NCBI RefSeq assembly: GCF_001610835.1
Contig: NZ_CP011270.1
Coordinates: 2,250,001-2,314,000, forward strand
Source: Planctomyces sp. SH-PL14
GTDB lineage: Bacteria > Planctomycetota > Planctomycetia > Planctomycetales > Planctomycetaceae
Direction of reading: 5' to 3'
DNA length: 64,000 nucleotides
The notes beneath the pieces are model-generated. The model did no database searches. It saw only the letters and a list, made by a program, of their open reading frames with translations, and was not told where the DNA came from. A program made the position numbers and the translations under genes. Shown one piece after another: positions 8,977 through 63,222 of the stretch. The first letter of the stretch is position 1. Each line of letters opens with the position of its first letter.

Positions 8977-9182
8977 GTGCGACCTTGCTCCCCGATGTGT
9001 TGAGGCGGTGGCCTGGCCGGGGCGTCTCCGTCTTCTGCCCCGCGGGAATGTCCGGCACCAATCCTTCCCCGCTCCTGCCGATCCGCCGCGGGCATCGTAT
9101 CACCGGTCGGGCCAAGGATCACGATGGTCGATGAAGGGCGGGTTCACATAGGCGTTCTCGACTCGATGCGTCGCGGATGGCT

Positions 9183-9497
9183 CTTGCCGGCACGACTTCC
9201 ATAGCTCAAACCCAATGTGCGACGGCAGCCTGGGGTCAAGGGGGCCTCGCCCCCTTGCCGCCGGAGGCATTTTCGATGGGGAACCGTGGTAAGCAACGGA
9301 CGTCCCCTTTGTGGAGCCGGCGTTGAGGACTCACTGCTCGCTTTGGAATCCCCGCGGGTTGGCGAGGGGGCATCCGGCACGTTGTCCGCGATTGGACACG
9401 CTCTCCTTCAGACATCTCTCGACGGCCAGGCCTCCGGCGGGCAAGAGGGCTTCGCCCCCTTGCATCCCCCACCAGGGGTGGCCCCCTGGACCCCGGT
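9183..9497 (-). repeat. Dispersed intergenic repeat, copy B
   Basis: Same family as copy A, inverted. It reads on + from TTGCCGGCACGAC and TAGCTCAAACCCAATGTG to CCCCCTGGACCCCGGT. Both hairpin arms are present (GGGTCAAGGGGGCCTCG... and CAAGAGGGCTTCGCCCCC...). It lies in the gap between divergent genes (8976 and 9592). The remaining flanks, 8977-9182 and 9498-9591, show no gene. Confidence 0.88.
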
Positions 9498-9591: not shown

Positions 9592-10707
9592 GTGACGAAC
9601 CGCTCCGCCTCCGCCGCCCTCGTTACCGCCCTGCTTCTGATCTCCCTCCTCATCGCCCCGCGCGGCTCGGCACAAACCCCAGCGGCCAAGCCCGCCGCCA
9701 AGGAGCCGGTCCTCGGCACCTACCACTGGCCCAACGGAACCGCCGGCGTCGACGCCTTCGCCACTTGGCTCGGCCGCGACGCGGTATGGGGACTGGACTT
9801 CGTCGGCTGGGAATCGTGGGACAACGTCGGCTGGCCCGTCTGGTGGCTCGAAGCGTGGTCGAAGTGGGTCCACGAGAAGCCGTCGCGCCGGTTCATCCTT
9901 TCCATCCCGCTCCTCACCGGCCCGGTCGACGGCAGCGGACCGACGCAGGGAAGCAAGGACGTCCGCAAGCCGGTCTCCCTCGAGCAGGGAGCGGCAGGGG
10001 CCTACAACCAACACTTCCGCGATCTAGCGACCAACCTCGTCCAGCACCGCCTGGGGGACACCATCCTGCGTCCCGGCTGGGAGTTCAACGGGAACTGGTA
10101 TCCGTGGGGAGCCAAGGGGAAGACGGCCGCCTTCGCGGAGTACTGGCGGCAGATCGTGAAGACGATGCGGGCGGTCCCCGGCGCGGAGGGGCTCAAGTTC
10201 TGCTGGAACCCGACGCTGGGAGACCAGCAGTTCCCGGCCGACGAGGCCTGGCCGGGGGACGAGTTCGTGGACTATGTCGGGGTCGACGTTTATGACGAGA
10301 CGTGGACCGCGGACACCTATCCGTGGCCGGCGGACGCGACCGCGGCGGAGATTGAGCGGCGGCAGAAGAAAGCATGGGAGGAGTGGATCGTCCAAAGCCC
10401 ACGGGGACTGGCGTTCTGGACGAAGTTCGCCAAGGACCACAAGAAGCCGCTGGCGATTCCGGAGTGGGGGCTGGTCTGGTCTGATCATCAGCATGGTGGT
10501 CTGGACAATCCGTACTTCATCGAGCGGATGCATGCCTTCCTGACCGATCCGGCGAATGGCGTGGCGTTCCATTGTTACTTCGATATCAACGAGACGGACC
10601 ACGGGCATCAGTTGTCGCCGGGCGTGGAGGGGACGGGCAAGGAGGAGGGAACGCGGTTCCCGAAGTCGGCGCGTCGTTTCCGAGAACTGTTCGGCAAAAC
10701 GCCCTGA
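9592..10707 (+). CDS. Secreted GH26-like glycoside hydrolase
   Basis: A 371-residue exported clan GH-A hydrolase, most like GH26 (beta-mannanase/related). A signal peptide covers about residues 1-27 (ends at APRGSAQ). The general acid/base is probably Glu164 in LRPGWEFNGNWYPW and the nucleophile Glu291 in PLAIPEWGL; both motifs are hallmarks of GH26-type TIM barrels. KFCWNPT and DYVGVDVYDETW also fit. Translation starts at GTG 9592. It probably degrades a plant or algal beta-glycan outside the cytoplasmic membrane; the exact substrate is not readable. It ends 12 bases before repeat copy C. Confidence 0.82.
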   Translation: MTNRSASAALVTALLLISLLIAPRGSAQTPAAKPAAKEPVLGTYHWPNGTAGVDAFATWLGRDAVWGLDFVGWESWDNVGWPVWWLEAWSKWVHEKPSRRFILSIPLLTGPVDGSGPTQGSKDVRKPVSLEQGAAGAYNQHFRDLATNLVQHRLGDTILRPGWEFNGNWYPWGAKGKTAAFAEYWRQIVKTMRAVPGAEGLKFCWNPTLGDQQFPADEAWPGDEFVDYVGVDVYDETWTADTYPWPADATAAEIERRQKKAWEEWIVQSPRGLAFWTKFAKDHKKPLAIPEWGLVWSDHQHGGLDNPYFIERMHAFLTDPANGVAFHCYFDINETDHGHQLSPGVEGTGKEEGTRFPKSARRFRELFGKTP

Positions 10708-10718
10708 AGAATCCGTAT

Positions 10719-11029
10719 CGGGGTCCAGGGGCTCGCCCCTGGTGGGGAGTGCAGAGGGGCAACGCCCCTTTGCCCGCCGGAGGCCTGGCCGTCGAGAGAT
10801 GTCTGAAGAACGGCGTGTCCAAGCGCGGACACCGTGCCGTATGCCCCCTCGCCAACCCGCTGGGATCCGAGGCGAGCGAGGAGTTCCCAACGCCGTTCTC
10901 ACAAAGCGGACGCCCGTTGCTTACCACGGTTCCTCAACGAAGCGCCTCCGGCGGCAAGGGGTGACCCCCTTGACCCCGGCTGCCGTCGCACGTTGGGTTT
11001 GAGCGAGCAACGCTGCGCCGGCAAGGGCG
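10719..11029 (+). repeat. Dispersed intergenic repeat, copy C
   Basis: Copy of the dispersed repeat in the same orientation as copy A, 311 bp. It occupies essentially the whole convergent gap between the GH26-like gene (ends 10707) and the FecR/LamG gene (ends 11043), leaving 11 and 13 bases. Its first hairpin has the variant form GTGCAGAGGGGCAACGCCCC shared with copies E, F and H. Confidence 0.9.
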
Positions 11030-11042
11030 TCTTTCGCAGCAA

Positions 11043-12749
11043 TCACGGCTCCGCTGTTTCCGCGGCCATCTGCTCGATCTCCTTCGGAGAGAGCGCCCGC
11101 GAGTAAAGCAGGAACTCATCGATCCGCCCCATCAAAAATCGCTCCGGAAACGCCTGCACATTCCCCGGCGTCCAGTTCCCCAGCTCCGCATCCCCGAACC
11201 GCACCGGAATCTCCTGAACCAGCGGCAGCTCCGCCACCGCCCGCCCGTTGACATAGTGAATCACCTTCCGCGCCGCCCGATCATAGACCACCGCAAAGTG
11301 CGTCCACCGCCCCAGGAACTCCTCATCCAGCGGCTGCGACAAGGAATACCGGATCCCCCGCCCCGGCCCCATCACCCCCAGTTCCAGCGAGCGGCGATTG
11401 CTCAGATGCCAGTGCCCCTCGAACCTCTCCCACCCATCCGCCATCAGCAGCGAGCTGAACCGGTTCGGCAGAGCATCGACACACGCCCACACCGCAATCG
11501 TGAGCGCGTCAAAGTCCCCGGGAATATGAAGCCGCACGCGGTCACACACCTGGCGAAAATCCAAGGCCGCCTTTCCAGGCCACCGCCCCGGTCCCCACTG
11601 ACAGCCGACAATCGTCCCGTCGCCGGAGGGAGACCGCCCCGGCACCTGATTCTTCAGAGTCCGGATCCAGTCCTCCTGCCGATCGAACGTGTAATAGACC
11701 GCCAGACTCGGATCCCGCTGCCGGGCCTCCCGCCGCGCCTCCCACGTCCGCAGCCGGGCCTGCGCCGTCGCCTGCGCCCGGACCACAAGCTCCTCCGAAC
11801 TGAGGAACGCCCCGGAATCGCTGGCGATCCGGTTCGCGGACTCCTGATGGTCAATACGGATCGCCTCGCCGGTCGTCAGCTCCCGCTCGGGAGCGACTCT
11901 CCGTTCGCCCGTCTTGTAGAGCTCGACCTTCCCTTCGAAGACGTGAACCTCGGTCGACGCCGTCCCATCGACCCGCAGGCCGAACTCCGTCCCCCGATCG
12001 ATCAGGTCCAGCCGCGGCGTGCCGATCGTGAACCCCTTGGCGTGCGGCGGGACTGTCGCCCGCAGCTTGCCGCGGGAACAGAACGCCTCCATCGGCGAGA
12101 CGATCTCGAAGTCCGCCGGCCCCTCAAGCACGACCGCCGCCCCGCTGTAGAACTCAATCTCCACGAAGCCCGACTTCAGCCGCAGCGCCCCGGGCGCCAG
12201 CCGGGAGCCGGCGTGCACCGGAGCCATCCCGGACTCCCACTCGGCCGATGAGTCTGCCCGAACGAGCGCCACCGTGTTGTCGAAATGGTCTTCGTCAGAC
12301 TCACCCGTCTGCGGAGCGCTCTCCGTGATCGCCGCCGAAGGCGAATCGGCGGCCCGCCGGGGCCCTGTCCACCACAACGCGGCAATGGCCACCAGGACCG
12401 CAACAGCCGCGGTCGCGAGTGAAGCGAACGGCCGGAGTGTCCACCATCGCGTCGCCGGCGAAACGGGCCTGACGGCGAACGGCGAGCCCATCCCCTCCGC
12501 GACCTCGATATGCCGCCGCAGCGCCTCCTCCACGAACTTCGGCGGCACCGAGAGAGCGTGAGTGAGATCGGCGTACATCCCCATGAACTGGACGTAGTAC
12601 GCCTCGGCCTCGGGCCGGCTGAGCACGATCTCCTCCAGCCGCGCAATCTCCTCGGGCCGGATCCGCTCCTCACAGAGCTTGTCGAGCAGAGCCCGCAGCT
12701 CCTCGGCTTCGGGAAAGGAAGTCGGCTGCGGGTTTGGATCGGGGTTCAT
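11043..12749 (-). CDS. FecR-type anti-sigma-like protein with C-terminal LamG domain
   Basis: A 568-residue protein. The N-terminal ~90 residues are a cytosolic helical region (ELRALLDKLCEERIRPEEIA), likely the sigma-binding part. A membrane helix follows (about 108-128, ATAAVAVLVAIAALWW). Next is a FecR-like beta domain (about 150-290) with GTPRLDLIDRGTEFGLRV and EVHVFEGKVELY. The C-terminal ~200 residues (from LAVYYTFDRQEDW) form a LamG/concanavalin-like domain ending in GRIDEFLLYSRALSPKEI. The ATG at 12749 overlaps the sigma-factor stop by four bases (ATGA), so translation is coupled. The pair probably transmits an envelope signal to the ECF sigma factor. Confidence 0.9.
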   Translation of the reverse strand: MNPDPNPQPTSFPEAEELRALLDKLCEERIRPEEIARLEEIVLSRPEAEAYYVQFMGMYADLTHALSVPPKFVEEALRRHIEVAEGMGSPFAVRPVSPATRWWTLRPFASLATAAVAVLVAIAALWWTGPRRAADSPSAAITESAPQTGESDEDHFDNTVALVRADSSAEWESGMAPVHAGSRLAPGALRLKSGFVEIEFYSGAAVVLEGPADFEIVSPMEAFCSRGKLRATVPPHAKGFTIGTPRLDLIDRGTEFGLRVDGTASTEVHVFEGKVELYKTGERRVAPERELTTGEAIRIDHQESANRIASDSGAFLSSEELVVRAQATAQARLRTWEARREARQRDPSLAVYYTFDRQEDWIRTLKNQVPGRSPSGDGTIVGCQWGPGRWPGKAALDFRQVCDRVRLHIPGDFDALTIAVWACVDALPNRFSSLLMADGWERFEGHWHLSNRRSLELGVMGPGRGIRYSLSQPLDEEFLGRWTHFAVVYDRAARKVIHYVNGRAVAELPLVQEIPVRFGDAELGNWTPGNVQAFPERFLMGRIDEFLLYSRALSPKEIEQMAAETAEP

Positions 12750-15248: not shown

Positions 15249-15556
15249 ACCGGGTCCAGGGGCACCCTGGTGGGGGATGCAAGGGGGCAACGCCCTCTTG
15301 CCCGCCGGAGGCCCTCTCGTCGAGAGGTGTCTGAAGGAGTGAGTGTCCAAACGCGGACGCAGTGCCGGATGCCCCTCACCAACCCGCGATGTCTTCAGAG
15401 CGAGCCGTGAGTCCCCAACGCCGGTTTCACAAAAGGGACGCCCGTCGTCTACCACGGTTCCTCATGGAAGTGCCTCCGGCGGCAAGGGGGCGAAGCCCCC
15501 TTGACCCCAGCGGCCGTCGCACGTTGGGTTTGAGCAAACAAAGCTGCGTCGGCATC
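15249..15556 (+). repeat. Dispersed intergenic repeat, copy D
   Basis: Full-length copy, same orientation as A. It shows the cleanest second arm: CAAGGGGGC-GAA-GCCCCCTTG is a perfect 9-bp hairpin preceded by GCCTCCGGCGG. The GTCGGCA end stops 12 bases short of the stop codon of the giant M56 gene. Confidence 0.9.
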
Positions 15557-15568
15557 GAAAAGCCAACA

Positions 15569-26262: not shown

Positions 26263-26370
26263 GAATCCGTTCTCGGGTTCGGCAACACGGGTGGCATGGG
26301 GGACCGAGGCGGTCCTGCCTGGGGATTCTATGGAAGGTTGGCTGGAATGCGAATTCGAGATTGGTGCGCC

Positions 26371-26679
26371 TGCCGGCACGACGTTTTAGCTCAAACCCAA
26401 TGTGCGACGGCAGCCGGGGTCAAGGGGGTCTCACCCCCTTGCCGCCGGAGGCGCTTCCATGAGGAACCGTGGGGCGCAACGGGCGTCCGCTTTGTGCAAC
26501 CGGCGTTTCGCGGTCCCCGCTCGCTTTGGAGTCCCCGCGGGTTGGTGAGGGGGCATACGGCAAGGTGTCCGCGCTTGGATACGCCCTCCTTCAGACATCT
26601 CTCGACGAGAGGGCCTCCGGCGGGCAAAGGGGCGTTGCCCCTCTGCACTCCCCACCAGGGGGAGCCCCTGGACCCCGGT
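26371..26679 (-). repeat. Dispersed intergenic repeat, copy E
   Basis: Full-length copy on the minus strand, between the start of glnS and the end of the GlmU-like gene. The ACCGGGGTCC end lies 25 bases from the stop codon at 26705. The second arm is TCAAGGGGG-TCTCA-CCCCCTTG, a variant loop of the same hairpin seen elsewhere. Confidence 0.9.
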
Positions 26680-31944: not shown

Positions 31945-31965
31945 GCGTCTCGGCGTCTCGAACTA

Positions 31966-32295
31966 CGTCCTTGCCGGCGCGGCTCTGTTAGCTCAAACCC
32001 AACGTGGTACGGCAGCCTGGGGTCAAGGGGGCCACGCCCCCTTGCCGCCGGAGGCATTTTGATGAGGAACCGTGGAGCACAACGGGCGACCGCTTTGTGG
32101 TCCCAGCTATGAGGACTCCCTCAATCCACACCGCTCGCTTCGCGATCCCCGCGGGTTGATGTGGGGGCATCCGACACGGCGTCCGCGTTTGGACACGATC
32201 TCCTTCAGACATCTTCCGACGGCCAGGCCTCCGGCGGGCAAAGGGGCGTTGCCCCTCTGCACTCCCCACCAGGGGCGTGGCCCCTGGACCCCGGT
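31966..32295 (-). repeat. Dispersed intergenic repeat, copy F
   Basis: Full-length minus-strand copy that fills the convergent gap between glgB (ends 31944) and the secreted protein ending at 32316. The second arm is TCAAGGGGGCCACGCCCCCTTG. The central section keeps the GGACCACAAAG-type box seen in copy A (complement at about 32095-32110). Confidence 0.9.
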
Positions 32296-33227: not shown

Positions 33228-33494
33228 ATCGCTCCCCTTCCCCTGAGCGAAACGGCACGCCCCCGTGCTGATCCGGCTGTCGGCTCCTGTTGGAGCCTCC
33301 CCCCTCCGGATCATCCGGGCAGACTGAACGGCGGCCTATCGCTGGCTGCCGCGGGGATCGCACCCCGGAAAAGTCTGCCCAACCGTTCGCACTGATACCA
33401 TCGGCACAACCGCGATGGGTTGATCAAGGGAAAGTCGTTCAAAGGGGAGAATACGGAGGCCGGATCGGCGGGACTGGCCGGAAGTCTCGAAATG

Positions 33495-33815
33495 TGTCCA
33501 TGCCGGCACGGCTCCCATAGCTCAAACCCAACGTGCCACGGCAGCCGGGGTCAAGGGGGTCACCCCTTGCCGCCGGAGGCGCTTTCATGAGGAACCGTGG
33601 GACGCCACGGATGTCCCTTTTGTGGGACCAGCGTTGAGGACTCCCTCACATCACACAGCTTGCTCTGCAATCCCCGCGTGTTGGTGAGGGGGCATACGGC
33701 ACCTTGTCCGCGCCTGGACACGTGCTCCTTCAGACATCTCTCGACGAGAGGGCCTCCGGCGGGCAAGGGGGTGTGACCCCCTTGCATCCCCCACCAGGGT
33801 GCCCCTGGACCCGGT
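33495..33815 (-). repeat. Dispersed intergenic repeat, copy G
   Basis: Minus-strand copy in the 640-base gap between divergent genes starting at 33227 and 33868. Its ACCGGGTCC end lies 52 bases upstream of the UbiA-type start codon, so the repeat could affect that promoter. The remaining stretch 33228-33494 shows no gene. Confidence 0.88.
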
Positions 33816-38214: not shown

Positions 38215-38541
38215 ACCGGGTCCAGGGGCACCCTGGTGGGGAGTGCAGAGGGGCAACGCCCCTTTGCCCGCCGGAGGCCTGTCCGTCGAGAGATGTCCTG
38301 AAGTCGGGCGTATCCAGGCGCGGACACCGTGCCGTATGCCCCCTCACCAACCCGCTTGGTTTTCAGAGCGAGCAGTGAAATCGAAACGCCGGCTCCATAA
38401 AGCGGTCGTCCGTTGTGTCCCACGGTTCCTCATGGAAGCGCCTCCGGCGGCAAGGGGGTGCTGTGTTGTTTCTTTGGCCTTTGACCCCTGGCTGCCGTGG
38501 CACGTTGGGTTTGAGCTAAGGACGTCCGTCCGGCAAGGACG
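38215..38541 (+). repeat. Dispersed intergenic repeat, copy H
   Basis: Full-length plus-strand copy between bcp (ends 38200) and the esterase (stop at 38516). The last 26 bases overlap the 3' end of the esterase gene. Like copy A it carries the TGTGTTGTTTCTTTGG insert in its second arm (38459-38480). Confidence 0.9.
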
Positions 38542-41041
38542 TTGTTTCACGCGGTCCCGTCTCGTCGACGCGGATCTCGGAACCCGGCAGCACCTGGCCA
38601 TGAAGTCCGTTCCGCATCCGCCATTCGATCGGCGTGCCGCCAGGGTACTCATGGGCGCGGCGGGGAGGGAGGTCGTGCCAGTCCGACCAGTAGGACTCCG
38701 GCGTCCGGACCCGGTAGACGAACGGCCGGCGTCCCTCGTTCACGATCCGGAGGGGCGGCGGAACCATTCCGAGCTCCAGACGCGTCGGGCGGGATCCGAG
38801 CGACTGCAGCCGCAGCCGGGACCCGCCCATCTCGATGTCCTTCACCGGCTCCGCCTGGGAGCGGGAAGTCGTCCAGGCAATCCAGGCCGTACGGAACGAT
38901 TCCACGACCGGCCGCACATCGCTCTCCGGCGATTCCGGGGTGACGCGGGGCTCGGTCGACCAGGCCGTCTGCAGGACACGCTTCGCGGGACTCGGGCGCT
39001 CGAGGCGGACCGTCAGATCGTGCTCGACGCGGAACCGGACCTGACGCTCGACGAGACGCGTTCCGTCGATGCGGCACGGGGTCAGCGCGGCGACGGGGGC
39101 GACGAGCGTGGCGCTGATCGAGTCCGCATCGCCGGGGTTCTTGGCCCTGTCCGGCCCACCGGTGAGCTCCAGCCGCATCGGGGCCAGGATTTCGAGCTCG
39201 ACATCGAGCTGCGTCTCGCCCCGCTCGGGGGAAAGCCCGGGCCAGAGCGCCGGGGTGGCGAGAGAGTGAAAGGCCGCCTCCGGCAGGTCGAGGACGTTGA
39301 TCCGGGCCATCCCCTGCTCGACCTGCATCGTCGAACCCGCCTCGACCAGCCACGGCGAGGCGAGGATCGACAAGCCGGCGTCGGCGGGGAGCGTCGCGAG
39401 CGTGATGTCGCTGCCGGCCAGCGTTCGCGGAGCATGGGGCGAAGGGAGGGAGCTGCCGATCAGTCCCGTTCCGACGACCGAGAGACCGGTGCCGTCGATC
39501 CAGAGCTGCTGCGGCTGAATCCGCAACCGGGGGGACTGCACCGGGAGAGGCCACAGGAGCGACGAGAGGCTCGACGGGACGTCGAGCGCGAGCCGCTCTT
39601 CGAGCTGCGCGAGCATCCGCGGGACGACCGCCTTGATCTCGGCTTCGATCGCTTCTTTCTGAAGATAGACGCCGCCGACGATGCCGGTCGTCAACTCGTA
39701 CTCGCCGAGGCCGGTCCCGCGGCGGACGATCCGCTCCGGGCGGGTGACGTACCAGTTGTCATCCTGGACGCGGAACGAGGTGCCGTCGTGGTGCAGCCGC
39801 AGCTTTCCGTTCTCGATCACGGGTCGGACACGGATCGTCATCGGCACCGCCCGCTGATGTCCGAGGACGACCTGGATCGGTCCCGCCTGGGCGTCGAGGG
39901 TCCGGCTGTGGATCGCCACGTCCGCGACCCGGAGCGTGAGCCGTTCCAATCCCAGCGACAGTTCGAGGCAGGCGTCCCGGCAGGCCCGCAGGTCGGCGCT
40001 CGTCAGGGCGCCGGCGAAGGTCAGGCCGCGGAACTCCGCGCGGTAGGCGTCCCCTTTGACGTCGAACGTCTTGATGATCGGCTCGAGCTCCCCTTTCAGG
40101 GAATCGGCGGGCATCAGGCCCGGCAGGCCGTGACCGATGGCCCCCAGGGCGTCGTTCCCGAGCCGCAGGCCGACCGCCTGGGGGACGATGAACGCGGTCT
40201 CGAACGGTTCATCCGTCCGCTGGACGCGCGACGGGGACGCCGGCGGCCAGTCGACCGATTCAGGAACGGGGGCATCGGCGGAGAGCATCCAGGCTCGAAC
40301 CTGCGGCTGACGGTAGACCATCTCCCAGGAGTCGTGTCCGACCGGCAGCTCGGTGAAGCCCGGACTTCCTCCGGCCCGGCGAAGGGCCTCGATGCTGGCC
40401 TTCGTTTCCTCGGGGAGGACGATCTCGTCCTGCGCTCCATGAAAGGCCCAGAGCCGGGCGCCCTTGAGCGCGGCGAGTCGGTCCTGGTCATCGCCTCCGC
40501 CGCCGGCGATCGGCAGGATGGCGGACCAATGGTCGGGATGCGCCGTCGCGAGGGACCAGACGCCGAAGCCTCCCATCGACCAGCCGGTCAGGATCCGTCG
40601 CGCGGGGTCGGTGTGGTAGGTCTTCTCGACCTCCGACAGGATCGCCAGGGCACGCTCGCCCGCGGGGCGGTCGGGGGACCAGGCTTTGTGGATCCGGCCG
40701 CCGAGAGGAACCTGAGGAAAGACGACGATCGCGGGAAACGGCGGTTGCTTGCTCGCGAGCTCGTCCCGGATCACTTCGCCGAGGCCGACCCGGGTGGGGC
40801 GGACGCCGTCCGTTCCCCGCTCTCCAGCGCCGTGGAGGAAGAGAACGACGGGCCAGCGGTCGCGGGAGGTGTAGTTCGGGGGGACGTAGACCGAGTAGGC
40901 GTGGTCTCCCTGATCGTCGTGGAATGTCTTCGTCTGAAAGCCGATTCCCGCTGGCTCCGCGGCGCGGACCGTCGGGGACAGGAACAGCGCTGTCGTGACC
41001 GCCGCGGCGGTGACGAAAAAGCGGACGGCGGCGGGCAACAT
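38516..41041 (-). CDS. Large secreted alpha/beta-hydrolase (esterase) with unknown C-terminal region
   Basis: An 841-residue exported protein. A signal peptide spans residues 1-28 (ends VRAAEP). Residues ~35-270 form a PHB-depolymerase/phospholipase-like esterase: oxyanion region LFLHGAGERG, nucleophile Ser155 in TGWSMGGFGVWS, acid in FHGAQDEIVLP and His in PVGHDSWEMVY. The remaining ~570 residues are unrecognised, beta-rich, and unusual for this esterase type. The last nine residues and the stop codon are encoded within repeat copy H, so the natural C-terminus may have been altered by the repeat. It probably cleaves an ester in the periplasm or outside the cell. Confidence 0.85.
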   Translation of the reverse strand: MLPAAVRFFVTAAAVTTALFLSPTVRAAEPAGIGFQTKTFHDDQGDHAYSVYVPPNYTSRDRWPVVLFLHGAGERGTDGVRPTRVGLGEVIRDELASKQPPFPAIVVFPQVPLGGRIHKAWSPDRPAGERALAILSEVEKTYHTDPARRILTGWSMGGFGVWSLATAHPDHWSAILPIAGGGGDDQDRLAALKGARLWAFHGAQDEIVLPEETKASIEALRRAGGSPGFTELPVGHDSWEMVYRQPQVRAWMLSADAPVPESVDWPPASPSRVQRTDEPFETAFIVPQAVGLRLGNDALGAIGHGLPGLMPADSLKGELEPIIKTFDVKGDAYRAEFRGLTFAGALTSADLRACRDACLELSLGLERLTLRVADVAIHSRTLDAQAGPIQVVLGHQRAVPMTIRVRPVIENGKLRLHHDGTSFRVQDDNWYVTRPERIVRRGTGLGEYELTTGIVGGVYLQKEAIEAEIKAVVPRMLAQLEERLALDVPSSLSSLLWPLPVQSPRLRIQPQQLWIDGTGLSVVGTGLIGSSLPSPHAPRTLAGSDITLATLPADAGLSILASPWLVEAGSTMQVEQGMARINVLDLPEAAFHSLATPALWPGLSPERGETQLDVELEILAPMRLELTGGPDRAKNPGDADSISATLVAPVAALTPCRIDGTRLVERQVRFRVEHDLTVRLERPSPAKRVLQTAWSTEPRVTPESPESDVRPVVESFRTAWIAWTTSRSQAEPVKDIEMGGSRLRLQSLGSRPTRLELGMVPPPLRIVNEGRRPFVYRVRTPESYWSDWHDLPPRRAHEYPGGTPIEWRMRNGLHGQVLPGSEIRVDETGPRETTSLPDGRP

Positions 41042-56556: not shown

Positions 56557-56940
56557 GGGCGTCGTACCGAGGAGGGGACGCCGGTCTATCGGCACGACGA
56601 CGGTTCCACGCGCCCGGGCCGCCAAAAGTCGCCCCATGGTCAGATGGGCTGTCCACGGACCAGGGTGAGGGCCATTGTTGCCCCCCGTTAACCGGCACGC
56701 GGGGGCGTGCGTTCGGCGCGGCGCAGAGGACGCACCGCGAGCGGGAGCCACCGTCGCGGCTCGGCCGGAGCCTCGCCCTCCCATGGAAGCGAGAGCTTCT
56801 TTCGTCACTGACGGGACTCGTTCCGAATTTGCGCCGTGTTACCCCCCCCCCCGTTGAAACGGTGGGCTATTTCCTTCCGTCCCTTGCGGGACTGAGGACA
56901 TCGAACGTTGAGACCGAAGCGCGAGCGGGGCGGAATGAGC

Positions 56941-60003: not shown

Positions 60004-61474
60004 CCCTTTGAAGGTGCATCCTCCTTCATGGTAAACCGGTGTCATGTCGAGACATGCACAGGATTTCCAGGGAGGAGGCGACCATGGTTGGTCAATCGGT
60101 CCTCGACCGCTTCATTCAGCAGGCTCCGCTTTGTGTTATGGCCCGGGCGACGCTTGAGAAAGTCTTCGCCCCGCAAAGATTGGATGCCCTGTTTCAACGG
60201 ACGGCTGTCCGACAGTACGAACGGGAGCTTCTGTTCTCGACCGTCGTCGATCTCATGAGCCTGGTCGTCTGTCGCGTCACACCGTCCGTTCATCGGGCCT
60301 ATCAGCAGAAGAAGGCCCAGATTCCCGTCTCCATCCGGGCTCTCTACGACAAACTGGGGCATATCGAACCGGCCACGTCCCGAGAACTGGTGCGGCAGAC
60401 CGCCTCTGAGATGGCCGAGCTGATCCGGACGCTGCCGGCGATGGCGGCTCCCCTCCTTCCCGGATACCGGGTCAAGATTCTCGACGGCAACCACCTAGAG
60501 GGAACAGAGCATCGGCTCAAGCCGCTGCGAACTCAAGGAGGCGGAGCCTTGCCCGGCCAGTGCGTCGTCCTGCTCGATCCCCAGCTCCGCATGATCCTGG
60601 ACGTGATTCCTGACCTGGATGCCTACACCCAGGAGTGTCGTCTCTGCCTGCCGCTGTTGGAGGGGATCGAACCCAAGGATGTGGTGATCGACGATCGGAA
60701 CTTCTGTACGAGCGAACTCCTGTTCGGTCTGGCCCGACACGCCGCGTTCTTCATCACCCGGCAGCATCGGGGCCGGCTGCGATGGGAGGTTACCGGGAAA
60801 GCCAAATCGCTCGGCCGGGGCGATTCCGGCCGCCTGACGGAAGAGCCTGTCCGCCTGACGGATCCCACAACCGGTGAGGTCCTGCCGGTCCGCAGAATCA
60901 CCATCGAGTTGGACGAACCAACCCGGGATCACGACTCCACGCTCCACTTGCTGACGAACCTGCCCGCCAGTGAGGTCACCGCAGCACAGGTCGCTGAGCT
61001 GTATCGGGAGCGATGGACGATCGAGACAGCCTTCCAGGAACTGACGACACACCTGAGGTGTGAACTCAACACCCTTGGCTATCCGCCTGCGGCCCTCTTC
61101 GGCTTCTGCACGGCGGTTGCGTGCTACAACGTCCTGGCGGTCGTGCAGGCCGCTCTGGCTTCTGCTCATGGCCAGGAGTTCGTTGACGAGCAGTTCTCGC
61201 ACTGGCGGATGTCGGATGAGCTCAGCCGCACCTACGTCGGGATGATGATCGCGATTCCGGCGGATCAATGGGAACAGTATGGAACTCTTCCCACCGAAGC
61301 TCTCAGCCGGCAGCTCCACGTCTGGGCCCAGAGCGTCGATGTCATCCGATATCGCAAATCGATTCGTGGTCCCAAGACACGCACCAAACGTCCAGCCGCG
61401 AGGGCTCAGCACTTCTCGACCGACAGGCTTCTCAAGCAGCGGAGATCCAACACGGGATAGCCACCTTCAAAAGG
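60004..61474 (+). mobile_element. IS4-type insertion sequence 1
   Basis: A ~1471-bp element bounded by CCCTTTGAAGGTG (60004-60016) and CACCTTCAAAAGG (61462-61474), inverted repeats matching 12 of 13. No clear target duplication is seen (left flank GAGTGCCAG, right flank TTACCCCCTT), so one border may have been lost. It truncates the carboxylesterase gene and stands directly left of a related element. Confidence 0.8.
60084..61460 (+). CDS. IS4-type DDE transposase 1
   Basis: A 458-residue DDE_Tnp_1 transposase. The first Asp is in VKILDGNHLEGTEHRLKPLR, the second in DVVIDDRNFCTSELLFGLAR, and the Glu in YRERWTIETAFQELTTHLRC, giving the Y-(2)-R-(3)-E signature of IS4. AGGGAGGAGG lies 5 bases upstream of the ATG at 60084, which is therefore preferred to the upstream start. 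The frame is intact. It is clearly related to the transposase immediately downstream (same three motifs, same length). Confidence 0.93.
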   Translation: MVGQSVLDRFIQQAPLCVMARATLEKVFAPQRLDALFQRTAVRQYERELLFSTVVDLMSLVVCRVTPSVHRAYQQKKAQIPVSIRALYDKLGHIEPATSRELVRQTASEMAELIRTLPAMAAPLLPGYRVKILDGNHLEGTEHRLKPLRTQGGGALPGQCVVLLDPQLRMILDVIPDLDAYTQECRLCLPLLEGIEPKDVVIDDRNFCTSELLFGLARHAAFFITRQHRGRLRWEVTGKAKSLGRGDSGRLTEEPVRLTDPTTGEVLPVRRITIELDEPTRDHDSTLHLLTNLPASEVTAAQVAELYRERWTIETAFQELTTHLRCELNTLGYPPAALFGFCTAVACYNVLAVVQAALASAHGQEFVDEQFSHWRMSDELSRTYVGMMIAIPADQWEQYGTLPTEALSRQLHVWAQSVDVIRYRKSIRGPKTRTKRPAARAQHFSTDRLLKQRRSNTG

Positions 61475-61477
61475 TTA

Positions 61478-62951
61478 CCCCCTTGACCTACCCCTTTAAA
61501 GGTGAGCGAGTCAGTCCTTACCCTGTCTCTGTCTGGAGGTTGCGACGGACTCCTGGAGAGGACAACAGGGATGTTGCCAGCCGAAGTGTTGGAGCGTTTT
61601 GTCGAACGCTGTCCCGCCGCGGTCATGGTGCGGGCCGAGCGGCTGGATGAGGTCTTCCAGCGGGCCGCCCAGCGGCAATACAGCCGCCAGCTCCTGTTCT
61701 CGCAGCTCGTGGCGATCATGTCGGCTGTCGCCACCCGTTCGCAGCCGTCTGTCCATGCCGCCTATCTGGCGGCTCAGGACAAACTCGACATCTCACCCCA
61801 GGCCCTGTACGACAAACTTCGACGGCTTGAACCGGCCGTCACGGCCGCCCTGGTCCGCGAGACCGCCCGCGATGCCGCACGAGCCATCGATGCTCTGCCG
61901 GGCCTGCGGCCACCCGTGCTGACCGGGGGACTGAAGACGTACGACGTCTATTGTGTCGACGGGAATCACCTGACCAGCACGGAGCACCGGCTTGCCGAGT
62001 TGCGGACGACCCGCGAAGCGGCCCTCCCCGGACAGACGCTGGCCCTGCTGGACCTTCGTCGGGGGCTGATCACGGAACTTGTTCCCGGCGAGGATGGCCA
62101 TGCCCAGGAACGCTCGCTCGTCCCGGAGCTGCTGGAGCGGTTGCGGAAGGGGATGGTGCTCGTCGCCGACCGGAACTTCTGCACGAGCCGGATCCTGTTC
62201 GGAATCGTGGAACACGCGGCCAGCTTTGTGATCCGCCAGCATCGCTCGACGCTCTCCTGGGAGCGGGAGGGGAAGCGGCGGCGGATCGGCCGGACGGCGA
62301 CGGGGATGATGTTCGAGCAGACCCTGGACCTGAACTATGAGGGCCAGACGCTGCCGGTCCGGCGGCTGACGATCGAACTGGACGGACCGACGAACCAAGG
62401 GGAGAGCGAAGTCCACATCCTGACGAATCTTCCGGCTGAAACGGTCCCGCCCGGCGAGGTGGTGGAGGCGTACCGCCTGCGGTGGACGATCGAAGAGGCG
62501 TTCCAGTGTCTGACGGAGGTTCTGCGGTGCGAGGTGGAAACGCTGGGCTATCCGCGGGCGGCCCTGTTCTCGTTTGCCGTGGCGGTGGTGGCCTGGAACA
62601 CGTATGCGGTGGTCAAGGGGGCGCTGAAGTCGGTTCACGGCTGGGAGACGATCGAGGCGACGCTGTCCGACTATCACCTGATGCATGACGTGCTGCTGAC
62701 GCACTGCGGCCTGGAGATCGCTGTGGAGGCTTCGGCGTGGTGCTGGCACCAGGGGTTGTGCCCCCAGGGGCTGGCGAAGGAGCTGGTTCGTCGGGCGAAG
62801 ACGGTGAAGTTGTCCCGGTATCCCAAGCGGAAGCGAGGTCCGAAACACCCGCCTCCCGCGAAAACAGGACGCCGCAACGATCACCTTTCGACCGCCAGAC
62901 TCCTTGAGAAACGCAAACGCAAACGACCTTGAAAGGGGTAGGTCAAGGGGG
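61478..62951 (+). mobile_element. IS4-type insertion sequence 2
   Basis: Bounded by inverted repeats of 26 bases matching 25 of 26 (61478-61503, CCCCCTTGACCTACCCCTTT...; and 62926-62951). By analogy with IS 1 the true ends may be the inner CCCTTTAAAGGTG/complement (about 61492-62937), because the outer CCCCCTTGACC also occurs inside the dispersed repeat. It has removed one end of repeat copy I. Confidence 0.75.
61571..62932 (+). CDS. IS4-type DDE transposase 2
   Basis: A 453-residue DDE_Tnp_1 transposase. The catalytic acids are in YCVDGNHLTSTEHRLAELRT, MVLVADRNFCTSRILFGIVE and YRLRWTIEEAFQCLTEVLRC. The ATG at 61571 is chosen because it aligns with the start of transposase 1 and has GAGAGGA upstream; a GTG at 61502 lies inside the terminal inverted repeat. 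The frame is intact. The basic C-terminus (RKRGPKHPPP) parallels the RGPKTRTKRP end of transposase 1. Confidence 0.93.
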   Translation: MLPAEVLERFVERCPAAVMVRAERLDEVFQRAAQRQYSRQLLFSQLVAIMSAVATRSQPSVHAAYLAAQDKLDISPQALYDKLRRLEPAVTAALVRETARDAARAIDALPGLRPPVLTGGLKTYDVYCVDGNHLTSTEHRLAELRTTREAALPGQTLALLDLRRGLITELVPGEDGHAQERSLVPELLERLRKGMVLVADRNFCTSRILFGIVEHAASFVIRQHRSTLSWEREGKRRRIGRTATGMMFEQTLDLNYEGQTLPVRRLTIELDGPTNQGESEVHILTNLPAETVPPGEVVEAYRLRWTIEEAFQCLTEVLRCEVETLGYPRAALFSFAVAVVAWNTYAVVKGALKSVHGWETIEATLSDYHLMHDVLLTHCGLEIAVEASAWCWHQGLCPQGLAKELVRRAKTVKLSRYPKRKRGPKHPPPAKTGRRNDHLSTARLLEKRKRKRP

Positions 62952-63222
62952 CCACGCCCCCTTGCCGCCGGAGGCACTTCCATGAGGAACCGTGGTCAGC
63001 AACGGATGTCCCCTTTGTGGTAGCCCCGTTGAGGACTCCCTCAATCCATACCGCTCGCTTTGCAATCCCCGCGGACTGGTAATGGGGCATCCGGCACGTT
63101 GTCCGCGTTTGGATACGTACTACTTCAGGCATCTGTCGACGGCCAGGCCTCCGGCGGGCAAAGGGCCCCAAAAACAACACAGGCCCCCTTGCATCCCCCA
63201 CCAGGGTGCCCCTGGACCCGGT
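62941..63222 (-). repeat. Dispersed intergenic repeat, copy I (truncated)
   Basis: Minus-strand copy that starts at GGTCAAGGGGG, inside the second arm, and so lacks the outer ~45 bases (TGCCGGCA...TAGCTCAAACCCAACGTG...). The missing end coincides with IS 2. Its first arm carries the CAAAAACAACACAGGCC insert (63165-63186) that other copies carry in the second arm. Its other end lies 23 bases from the ruvA stop codon. Confidence 0.88.

What the first reader, a model, noticed from the sequence alone, without database searches (positions are those of the whole stretch)
10708..11042. The dispersed repeat is positioned flush against stop codons
Measured from the calls here: distance from repeat edge to the nearest stop codon is 5 (copy A), 12 and 14 (C), 13 (D), 26 (E), 22 and 21 (F), 15 or overlapping (H) and 24 bases (I). 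Only B and G, both in divergent gaps, are far from a stop. Four copies fill convergent gaps almost exactly. This suggests either insertion targeted to transcription-termination regions or a retained function as a bidirectional terminator/3'-end processing element. Both ends have GC-rich hairpins but no T runs, so a simple intrinsic terminator does not fit well.
Basis: partly seen in the sequence, partly recalled or inferred. Interest (0 to 1): 0.7.

Follow-up and report, generated by a model that had tools for sequence, protein, structure and literature searches.

The report
Structured repeat abutting gene ends
One bacterial genome carries roughly a thousand copies of a 320-letter folded DNA repeat, never seen twice in one gap between genes and pressed against the ends of genes but kept away from their starts, which suggests an old element now sitting as a marker between neighbouring transcription units.

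Summary
A systematic sample of 1.664 Mb (19.7% of the 8.44 Mb genome) holds 231 copies (173 full), or about 1,170 per genome. Of full-copy sides facing a stop codon, 84 of 185 lie within 15 nt; of sides facing a start, 0 of 157. Allowing a 60-nt promoter-free zone, 41 of 84 tandem-gap copies lie within 15 nt of the stop, against 19.7±3.2 for random placement. Occupancy does not rise with gap length, operon-internal gaps are nearly empty, and no gap holds two independent copies (21.6 expected). Orientation is random. Divergent gaps are also occupied (42 of 193), so copies sit singly at transcription-unit boundaries, off promoters, flush at 3' ends. The element folds, has near-invariant stems, no linkage between distant variable sites, no target duplications, no mobilising gene found, and no relative outside this genome in the collections searched. 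It is not an intrinsic terminator. Best reading: an old REP/MITE-like expansion, now mostly immobile, constrained in place, with the spacers to stop codons worn away. A boundary or 3'-end role is inferred, not shown.

The parts
10720..11033 (+). Repeat copy at the given coordinates (core by profile match); convergent gap, 12 nt after the stop at 10705-10707 and 9 nt before the stop at 11043-11045
10725..10742 (+). Hairpin 1 (CCAGGGG..CCCCTGG)
   Evidence: sequence; RNAalifold
10751..10773 (+). Hairpin 2; compensatory A-T/G-C changes and G.T wobbles on the + strand only
10774..10784 (+). 5' arm of the central stem CCGCCGGAGGC (6 deviations in 1902 cells of 173 full copies)
10944..10954 (+). 3' arm of the central stem GCCTCCGGCGG (13 deviations in 1903 cells)
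10955..10972 (+). Hairpin 3; insertion sequences sit here in other copies
10977..11033 (+). Tail domain; its right end fades out and often runs into a neighbouring stop codon
4127..4466 (+). Repeat copy, convergent gap
9181..9494 (-). Repeat copy, divergent gap
15251..15558 (+). Repeat copy, tandem gap, 10 nt from a stop
26368..26676 (-). Repeat copy, tandem gap, 28 nt from a stop
31962..32292 (-). Repeat copy, convergent gap, 17 and 23 nt
33491..33814 (-). Repeat copy, divergent gap
38216..38545 (+). Repeat copy, convergent gap; the gene 38516-41041 (-) ends inside it
62941..63221 (-). Partial copy (model 1-259), broken in hairpin 3 by an insertion sequence

Best explanation
A ~320-nt folded intergenic repeat spread through this genome to roughly 1,170 copies in the past (mechanism unknown, REP/MITE-like in outcome) and is now mostly immobile. 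Copies survive only between transcription units, one per gap: outside reading frames, outside operons and 60-120 nt from starts. Most full copies appear to be held in place by selection on the fold. DNA between the copy and a stop codon is unconstrained and has been lost by deletions that halt at the stop codon, leaving the copy flush. The most likely job is an orientation-independent boundary or 3'-end element (limiting read-through or antisense from the neighbour, or protecting transcript 3' ends). Shown: copy number, placement, single occupancy, fold, uneven constraint. Inferred: age, in-place selection, erosion, function.
For: Copy number: 231 in 1.664 Mb. Placement: 84 of 185 stop sides within 15 nt, 0 of 157 start sides; 3 of 163 tandem gaps with residual length up to 50 nt occupied (0 of 75 overlapping, 1 of 39, 2 of 49), 104 of 480 at 75 nt or more. 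Single occupancy: 871 eligible gaps, mean 0.241 copies, 21.6 gaps with two or more expected, 3 seen, each consisting of two pieces of one copy by model coordinates. Occupancy not proportional to length: convergent 27 of 65 at 0-50 nt, 10 of 63 above 150 nt. Fold: hairpin 2 pair 34-48 is AT 78, GC 77, GT 17, AC 1; + strand more stable in 53 of 60 copies. Constraint: central stem 19 deviations in 3805 cells against about 12.5% in the inner region, nearest neighbours only 82-92% identical, r2 at the noise floor beyond 60 nt. Truncated copies have 2.4 times the change at constrained sites (1.94% against 0.84%, cross-validated). Broken sides of partial copies still end a median 14.5 nt from stops. 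Two other short repeat families in this genome are less flush: 3 of 28 and 0 of 7, 1 of 9 and 1 of 8 stop sides within 15 nt.
Against: Random orientation (44 same, 46 opposite) argues against a strand-specific RNA role. Truncated left-kept copies keep the 5' stem arm perfectly (0 of 286 cells), which a loss of in-place selection should have disturbed if they were old. No transcript data. Convergent gaps without a copy are not clearly longer once gaps over 300 nt are removed (median 67.5 against residual 36, p=0.08), so 'replaces the terminator' is weak. The two other families were measured by motif cores, which inflates their distances. Orthologous empty sites could not be compared: only 3 and 1 conserved gene pairs with two relatives, and the pyrH and hisH neighbours are not syntenic.
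Confidence: 0.45

Rival explanations
1. A mobile non-autonomous element (MITE or REPIN-like) whose insertion machinery prefers sites just downstream of genes; copies are passengers and variation is inherited from many source copies.
For: Sharp left end (AAC[C/G]GGGTCC), inverted terminal arms, TIR-like CCGGGGTC..GACCCCGG. Stop-side preference beyond promoter avoidance. Truncated copies carry the same variable and constant sites as full ones. Single occupancy would fit target immunity.
Against: No target-site duplication at any tested offset (167 copies, 8509 offset and length tests, best z 5.0 on 3 cases). No copy pair above 92.4% in the sample of 173, 93% best in one genome search. No bias relative to inferred replication direction (122:109, p=0.43; the origin estimate from weak GC skew is shaky). 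None of 2 Y1 transposase and 5 reverse transcriptase genes is bracketed by copies; one lies downstream of each of two loci.
Confidence: 0.3
2. Random insertion filtered by selection against damage to genes, operons and promoters, with no targeting and no function.
For: No full copy lies mostly in a called gene (0 of 81); starts are avoided in all gap types; divergent gaps are occupied (42 of 193).
Against: Occupancy should rise with gap length and does not; two or more copies in a gap expected 21.6 times, 0 independent pairs seen; stop-side excess remains after removing a 40-, 60- or 80-nt start zone; uneven site constraint.
Confidence: 0.17
3. A dedicated family of ordinary intrinsic terminators.
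For: GC-rich hairpins just after stop codons, both orientations.
Against: No T run; T-run hairpins are equally rare with and without a copy (13 of 198, 56 of 919); present between divergent genes; about 240 nt more than a terminator needs.
Confidence: 0.03
4. Scattered copies of a trans-acting structured RNA gene (guide-RNA or HEARO-like).
For: Long conserved fold, sharp end, high copy number.
Against: No Rfam family at gathering score, and only chance-level hits at E up to 10; no associated gene found; flank placement follows genes.
Confidence: 0.05

Closest known systems
REP / BIME sequences (E. coli, Pseudomonas and others)
   Same: High-copy palindromic intergenic repeats, mostly near 3' ends; about half of one E. 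coli REP set lies within 15 nt of a stop (passages read in PMC12306157, which cites Liang et al. 2015, not read); biased to convergent and unidirectional gaps, some supply the stop codon (passages read in PMC3733652).
   Different: About 320 nt instead of 20-40; no GTAG or CGTC tag; no RAYT gene bracketed; never two in a gap; divergent gaps well occupied.
REPINs (Pseudomonas fluorescens SBW25)
   Same: Inverted arms that fold as single-strand hairpins; more than a thousand REP units in one genome (passages read in PMC3116915).
   Different: Larger, without a short invariant core repeated twice; REP doublets are described there as randomly spread in extragenic space, these are flush with stops and singly placed.
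Intergenic stem-loop repeats such as Ype and Efa elements
   Same: Repeats larger than REPs that lie preferentially near CDS 3' ends (passages read in PMC1590033).
   Different: Different sequence and host; about 1,170 copies here; one copy per gap.
MITEs
   Same: Non-coding, inverted terminal arms, dispersed.
   Different: No target-site duplication found, no parent element found.

Membership tests
REP (GTAG/CGTC class) | 20-40 nt palindromic unit | tested here: not met
   Unit is about 319 nt with three hairpins and a long central stem
REP (GTAG/CGTC class) | GTAG or CGTC tag at the hairpin base | tested here: not met
   Left end is AAC[C/G]GGGTCC in 208 copies
REP (GTAG/CGTC class) | RAYT (Y1 transposase) gene flanked by the repeat | tested here: not met
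   2 Y1_Tnp loci in the genome; one has a single partial match at its left edge, 1.3 kb from the Y1 match, the other none (about 1.5 kb per side seen)
REP (GTAG/CGTC class) | location near gene 3' ends | tested here: met
   84 of 185 stop sides within 15 nt, 0 of 157 start sides
MITE | terminal inverted repeats | tested here: met
   11-nt perfect inner arms and CCGGGGTC/GACCCCGG near the ends, but the true right end is diffuse
MITE | target-site duplication | tested here: not met
   167 copies, 8509 tests, none convincing
MITE | related full-length transposon | tested here: inconclusive
   No longer copy with a gene between the ends in 231 sampled copies; 80% of the genome not read
Intrinsic terminator | hairpin followed by a T run | tested here: not met
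   and sequences
Known structured RNA (Rfam 15) | match at gathering score | tested here: not met

The most novel reading that the evidence does not exclude
A single bacterial lineage has turned a repeat into a chromosome-wide set of roughly 900 full-length, orientation-independent transcription-unit boundary elements, one per boundary and each under selection in place, a bacterial analogue of insulators made from mobile DNA.
Probability: 0.2. Interest if true: 0.8.

Novelty: new variant of a known kind. Interest (0 to 1): 0.5.

Why it matters
3'-end bias of bacterial repeats is known, but whether it reflects targeting, filtering or function is open. This family has enough copies in one genome to separate them: occupancy is per gap and not per base, single, orientation-free and tied to the fold. 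If the boundary role is right, it is a cheap system for asking how a bacterium keeps neighbouring transcription units apart without T-run terminators.

Tried and rejected
Intrinsic terminator: no T runs, and terminator-like sites equally rare with and without a copy. Rfam RNA families: none. Target-site duplication: none. Lagging-strand orientation bias expected of Y1 transposition: none. Autonomous partner: Y1_Tnp and RVT_1 loci carry no bracketing copies. Group II intron and integron attC ideas came from recall, were judged by eye only (no GUGYG start, no attC boxes) and dropped. Orthologous empty sites: two relatives sampled (400 kb each), only 3 and 1 conserved pairs; the single pair with a copy (549 against 40 nt) has 30-31% protein identity and is not firm. 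pyrH and hisH downstream gaps in relatives gave no syntenic neighbour; loci lying on the minus strand were not turned round in that script, so its 'after stop' strings for those rows are not reliable. RNAalifold on the tail alone returned zero energy and was not used. Covariance model of hairpin 3 plus tail: 1 of 101 family genomes, this one (strict filters). Spacing of occupied gaps: not different from permutation over all gaps (42 against 44.4±5.3), slightly fewer within stretches (50.3±5.0).

The literature searches that found no description of this repeat were made; they cover only the held open-access library.

Full report
What was checked. The finding concerns a dispersed repeat whose edges lie close to stop codons. 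I located the copies in the window by BLAST and profile search, called genes with a codon-usage model that I wrote and trained on this DNA, and measured edges.

Scale. The genome is one 8,442,773-base contig, of which the window is 2,250,001-2,314,000. I read 80 stretches of 20 kb spread over it plus the window, 1.664 Mb in all. The second profile finds 231 copies of at least 35 bits there: 173 full, 37 that keep only the left end, 20 only the right end, 1 neither. That scales to about 1,170 copies.

Placement. Of 173 full copies, 169 are single copies in a gap between two called genes: 47 convergent, 90 tandem, 32 divergent; 4 others were not placed. Distances to stops have medians of 20.5 nt (94 sides, convergent) and 19.5 nt (90, tandem); to starts 119.5 (90, tandem) and 127 (64, divergent). 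A second count by nearest gene gives 84 of 185 stop sides within 15 nt and 0 of 157 start sides. Random replacement of each copy inside its own gap predicts 38.4±3.3 copies within 15 nt of a stop where 72 of 137 are seen. Excluding 40, 60 or 80 nt next to starts leaves 41 of 87, 41 of 84 and 32 of 67 against 14.1, 19.7 and 15.1. So the stop-side bias is more than promoter avoidance.

What the bias is not. It is not confined to stops: divergent gaps are occupied in 42 of 193 cases, convergent in 60 of 196, tandem in 115 of 725. Tandem gaps with residual length up to 50 nt, mostly inside operons by inference, are occupied in 3 of 163 cases and those of 75 nt or more in 104 of 480; convergent gaps of 0-50 nt in 27 of 65 and those above 150 nt in 10 of 63 (bins summed). 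A random inserter should hit long gaps more often. Among 871 eligible gaps with a mean of 0.241 copies, 21.6 should hold two or more; 3 do, and by orientation and model coordinates each is one copy split by a deletion or an insert. The rule is one copy per transcription-unit boundary, flush at 3' ends and held back from 5' ends. Of 20 tRNA genes, 3 have a copy within 250 nt, all on the 5' side.

Anatomy. The consensus begins AAC[C/G]GGGTCC, with a sharp left edge (208 copies), and fades at the right after GCCGGCAAGGACG and a weaker CGGTTCGAG. On the + strand it folds into hairpin 1, hairpin 2, a long stem whose 11-nt arms lie 160 nt apart, hairpin 3 and a tail. Hairpin 2 shows compensatory change (pair 34-48: AT 78, GC 77, GT 17, AC 1; pair 39-43: CG 145, AT 22) and 167 G.T against 4 A.C cells, which favours the + strand; hairpin 3 shows 9 against 15. 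The + strand is the more stable in 53 of 60 copies. Orientation to the neighbouring gene is nevertheless random (44:46). There are no T runs next to the hairpins.

Evolution. Mean pairwise identity is 83%, nearest neighbours 82-92%. Common variable sites more than 60 nt apart show r2 of 0.007-0.008, against a noise floor of 0.006, and shuffling each column independently gives nearest-neighbour identities almost as high (median 0.873 against 0.893). So there is hardly any family tree among copies. Sites differ enormously: the central stem deviates in 19 of 3805 cells, the inner region in 3425 of 27503. A single old burst followed by neutral decay would hit all sites alike, so this points to constraint on copies after they parted. 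Truncated copies change 2.4 times more at constrained sites in a cross-validated comparison (the 26 truncated copies are the same in all 200 splits). Against this, the same truncated copies keep the 5' stem arm in 286 of 286 cells; they may be recent, or part of the element may suffice. Inherited variation from many source copies is the alternative I cannot exclude.

Why flush. On the broken side of partial copies the stop is still a median 14.5 nt away (28 sides), while broken sides facing starts keep 119.5 nt (26 sides). I read this as deletions that stop at the gene's end or at the promoter. In two full copies a gene runs at least 9 nt into the repeat. Two other repeat families in this genome lie nearer stops than starts in tandem gaps but are less flush (3 of 28 and 0 of 7; 1 of 9 and 1 of 8 stop sides within 15 nt), and palindromes of a related genome are not flush (0 of 35) (motif cores only, small numbers, no T test made). 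General compaction is therefore not the whole story.

Origin. No target duplication, no orientation bias to replication (122:109; origin from weak skew), no bracketing transposase or reverse transcriptase (about 1.5 kb each side seen). The repeat was not found in 58 relatives, in 389 of 391 other genomes of the phylum set, the other two having 27-38-base matches (two candidates scored per genome), in 100 other family genomes by a covariance model of hairpin 3 and tail, or by exact patterns in genome contigs (own genome excluded) and viral contigs.

Known ground. Bias of stem-loops and REPs to CDS 3' ends, to convergent and unidirectional gaps, and within 15 nt of stop codons is in print (passages read: PMC1590033; PMC3733652; PMC12306157). 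REP doublets in P. fluorescens SBW25 are described as randomly distributed in extragenic space (PMC3116915). This family shares the placement but not the size, tag or partner gene, and adds single occupancy. I file it as a new variant of 3'-end-biased extragenic repeats, not as a REP.

Verdict. The likely story is an old expansion, immobile now, constrained in place at transcription-unit boundaries, with spacers to stop codons worn away. A boundary or 3'-end function is the best guess and is untested.

Noticed in passing
window 60039-63221; L052, L053, L070, L020, L080, L018, L022: Insertion sequences of at least two kinds sit inside hairpin 3 of the repeat (breaks at model positions 236-265). 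The window copy at 62941-63221 is broken this way, with 473- and 476-aa ORFs that look like DDE transposases (recall, no family search). As with insertion sequences known to target REPs, the repeat seems to be a landing site.
   Followed up: partly
L047, L027, L072, L046, L042, L086, L015, L028, L014, L059, L030: A second, smaller family (15 hits in 1.664 Mb) joins a different hairpin (CCAGCGTCCCGCTGG) to a relative of the main repeat's tail; several copies start within 0-10 nt of a stop codon.
   Followed up: partly
L058, L025, L030, L063 and others: Short repeats of the type CACAGATnnACACAGAT in intergenic DNA, 14 of 23 gaps convergent.
   Followed up: partly
L183, L186, L197 (genome G062): A related genome of the same family has quite different 25-30-nt palindromes packed in its gaps (GGCAGACA..TGTCTGCC, GCTGGGAC..GTCCCAGC, GCCACGGCTC..GAGCCGTG), so lineages seem to carry their own repeat sets.
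   Followed up: partly
window 56847-56893 (+): Rfam Acido-Lenti-1 RNA just over its gathering score (37.3 against 37 bits), function unknown.
   Followed up: no
repeat model positions 27, 28, 33, 34: Two haplotypes, AG..GA and GA..AG, in near equal numbers with almost no intermediates, linked to pair 34-48 but not to distant sites. They are not base pairs; recombination between copies or two sources could explain them.
   Followed up: no
L028, L036, L086, L049, L053, L024: Partial copies whose break lies within or a few nt from the stop codon of the facing gene, as if a deletion fused the gene end to the repeat interior.
   Followed up: partly
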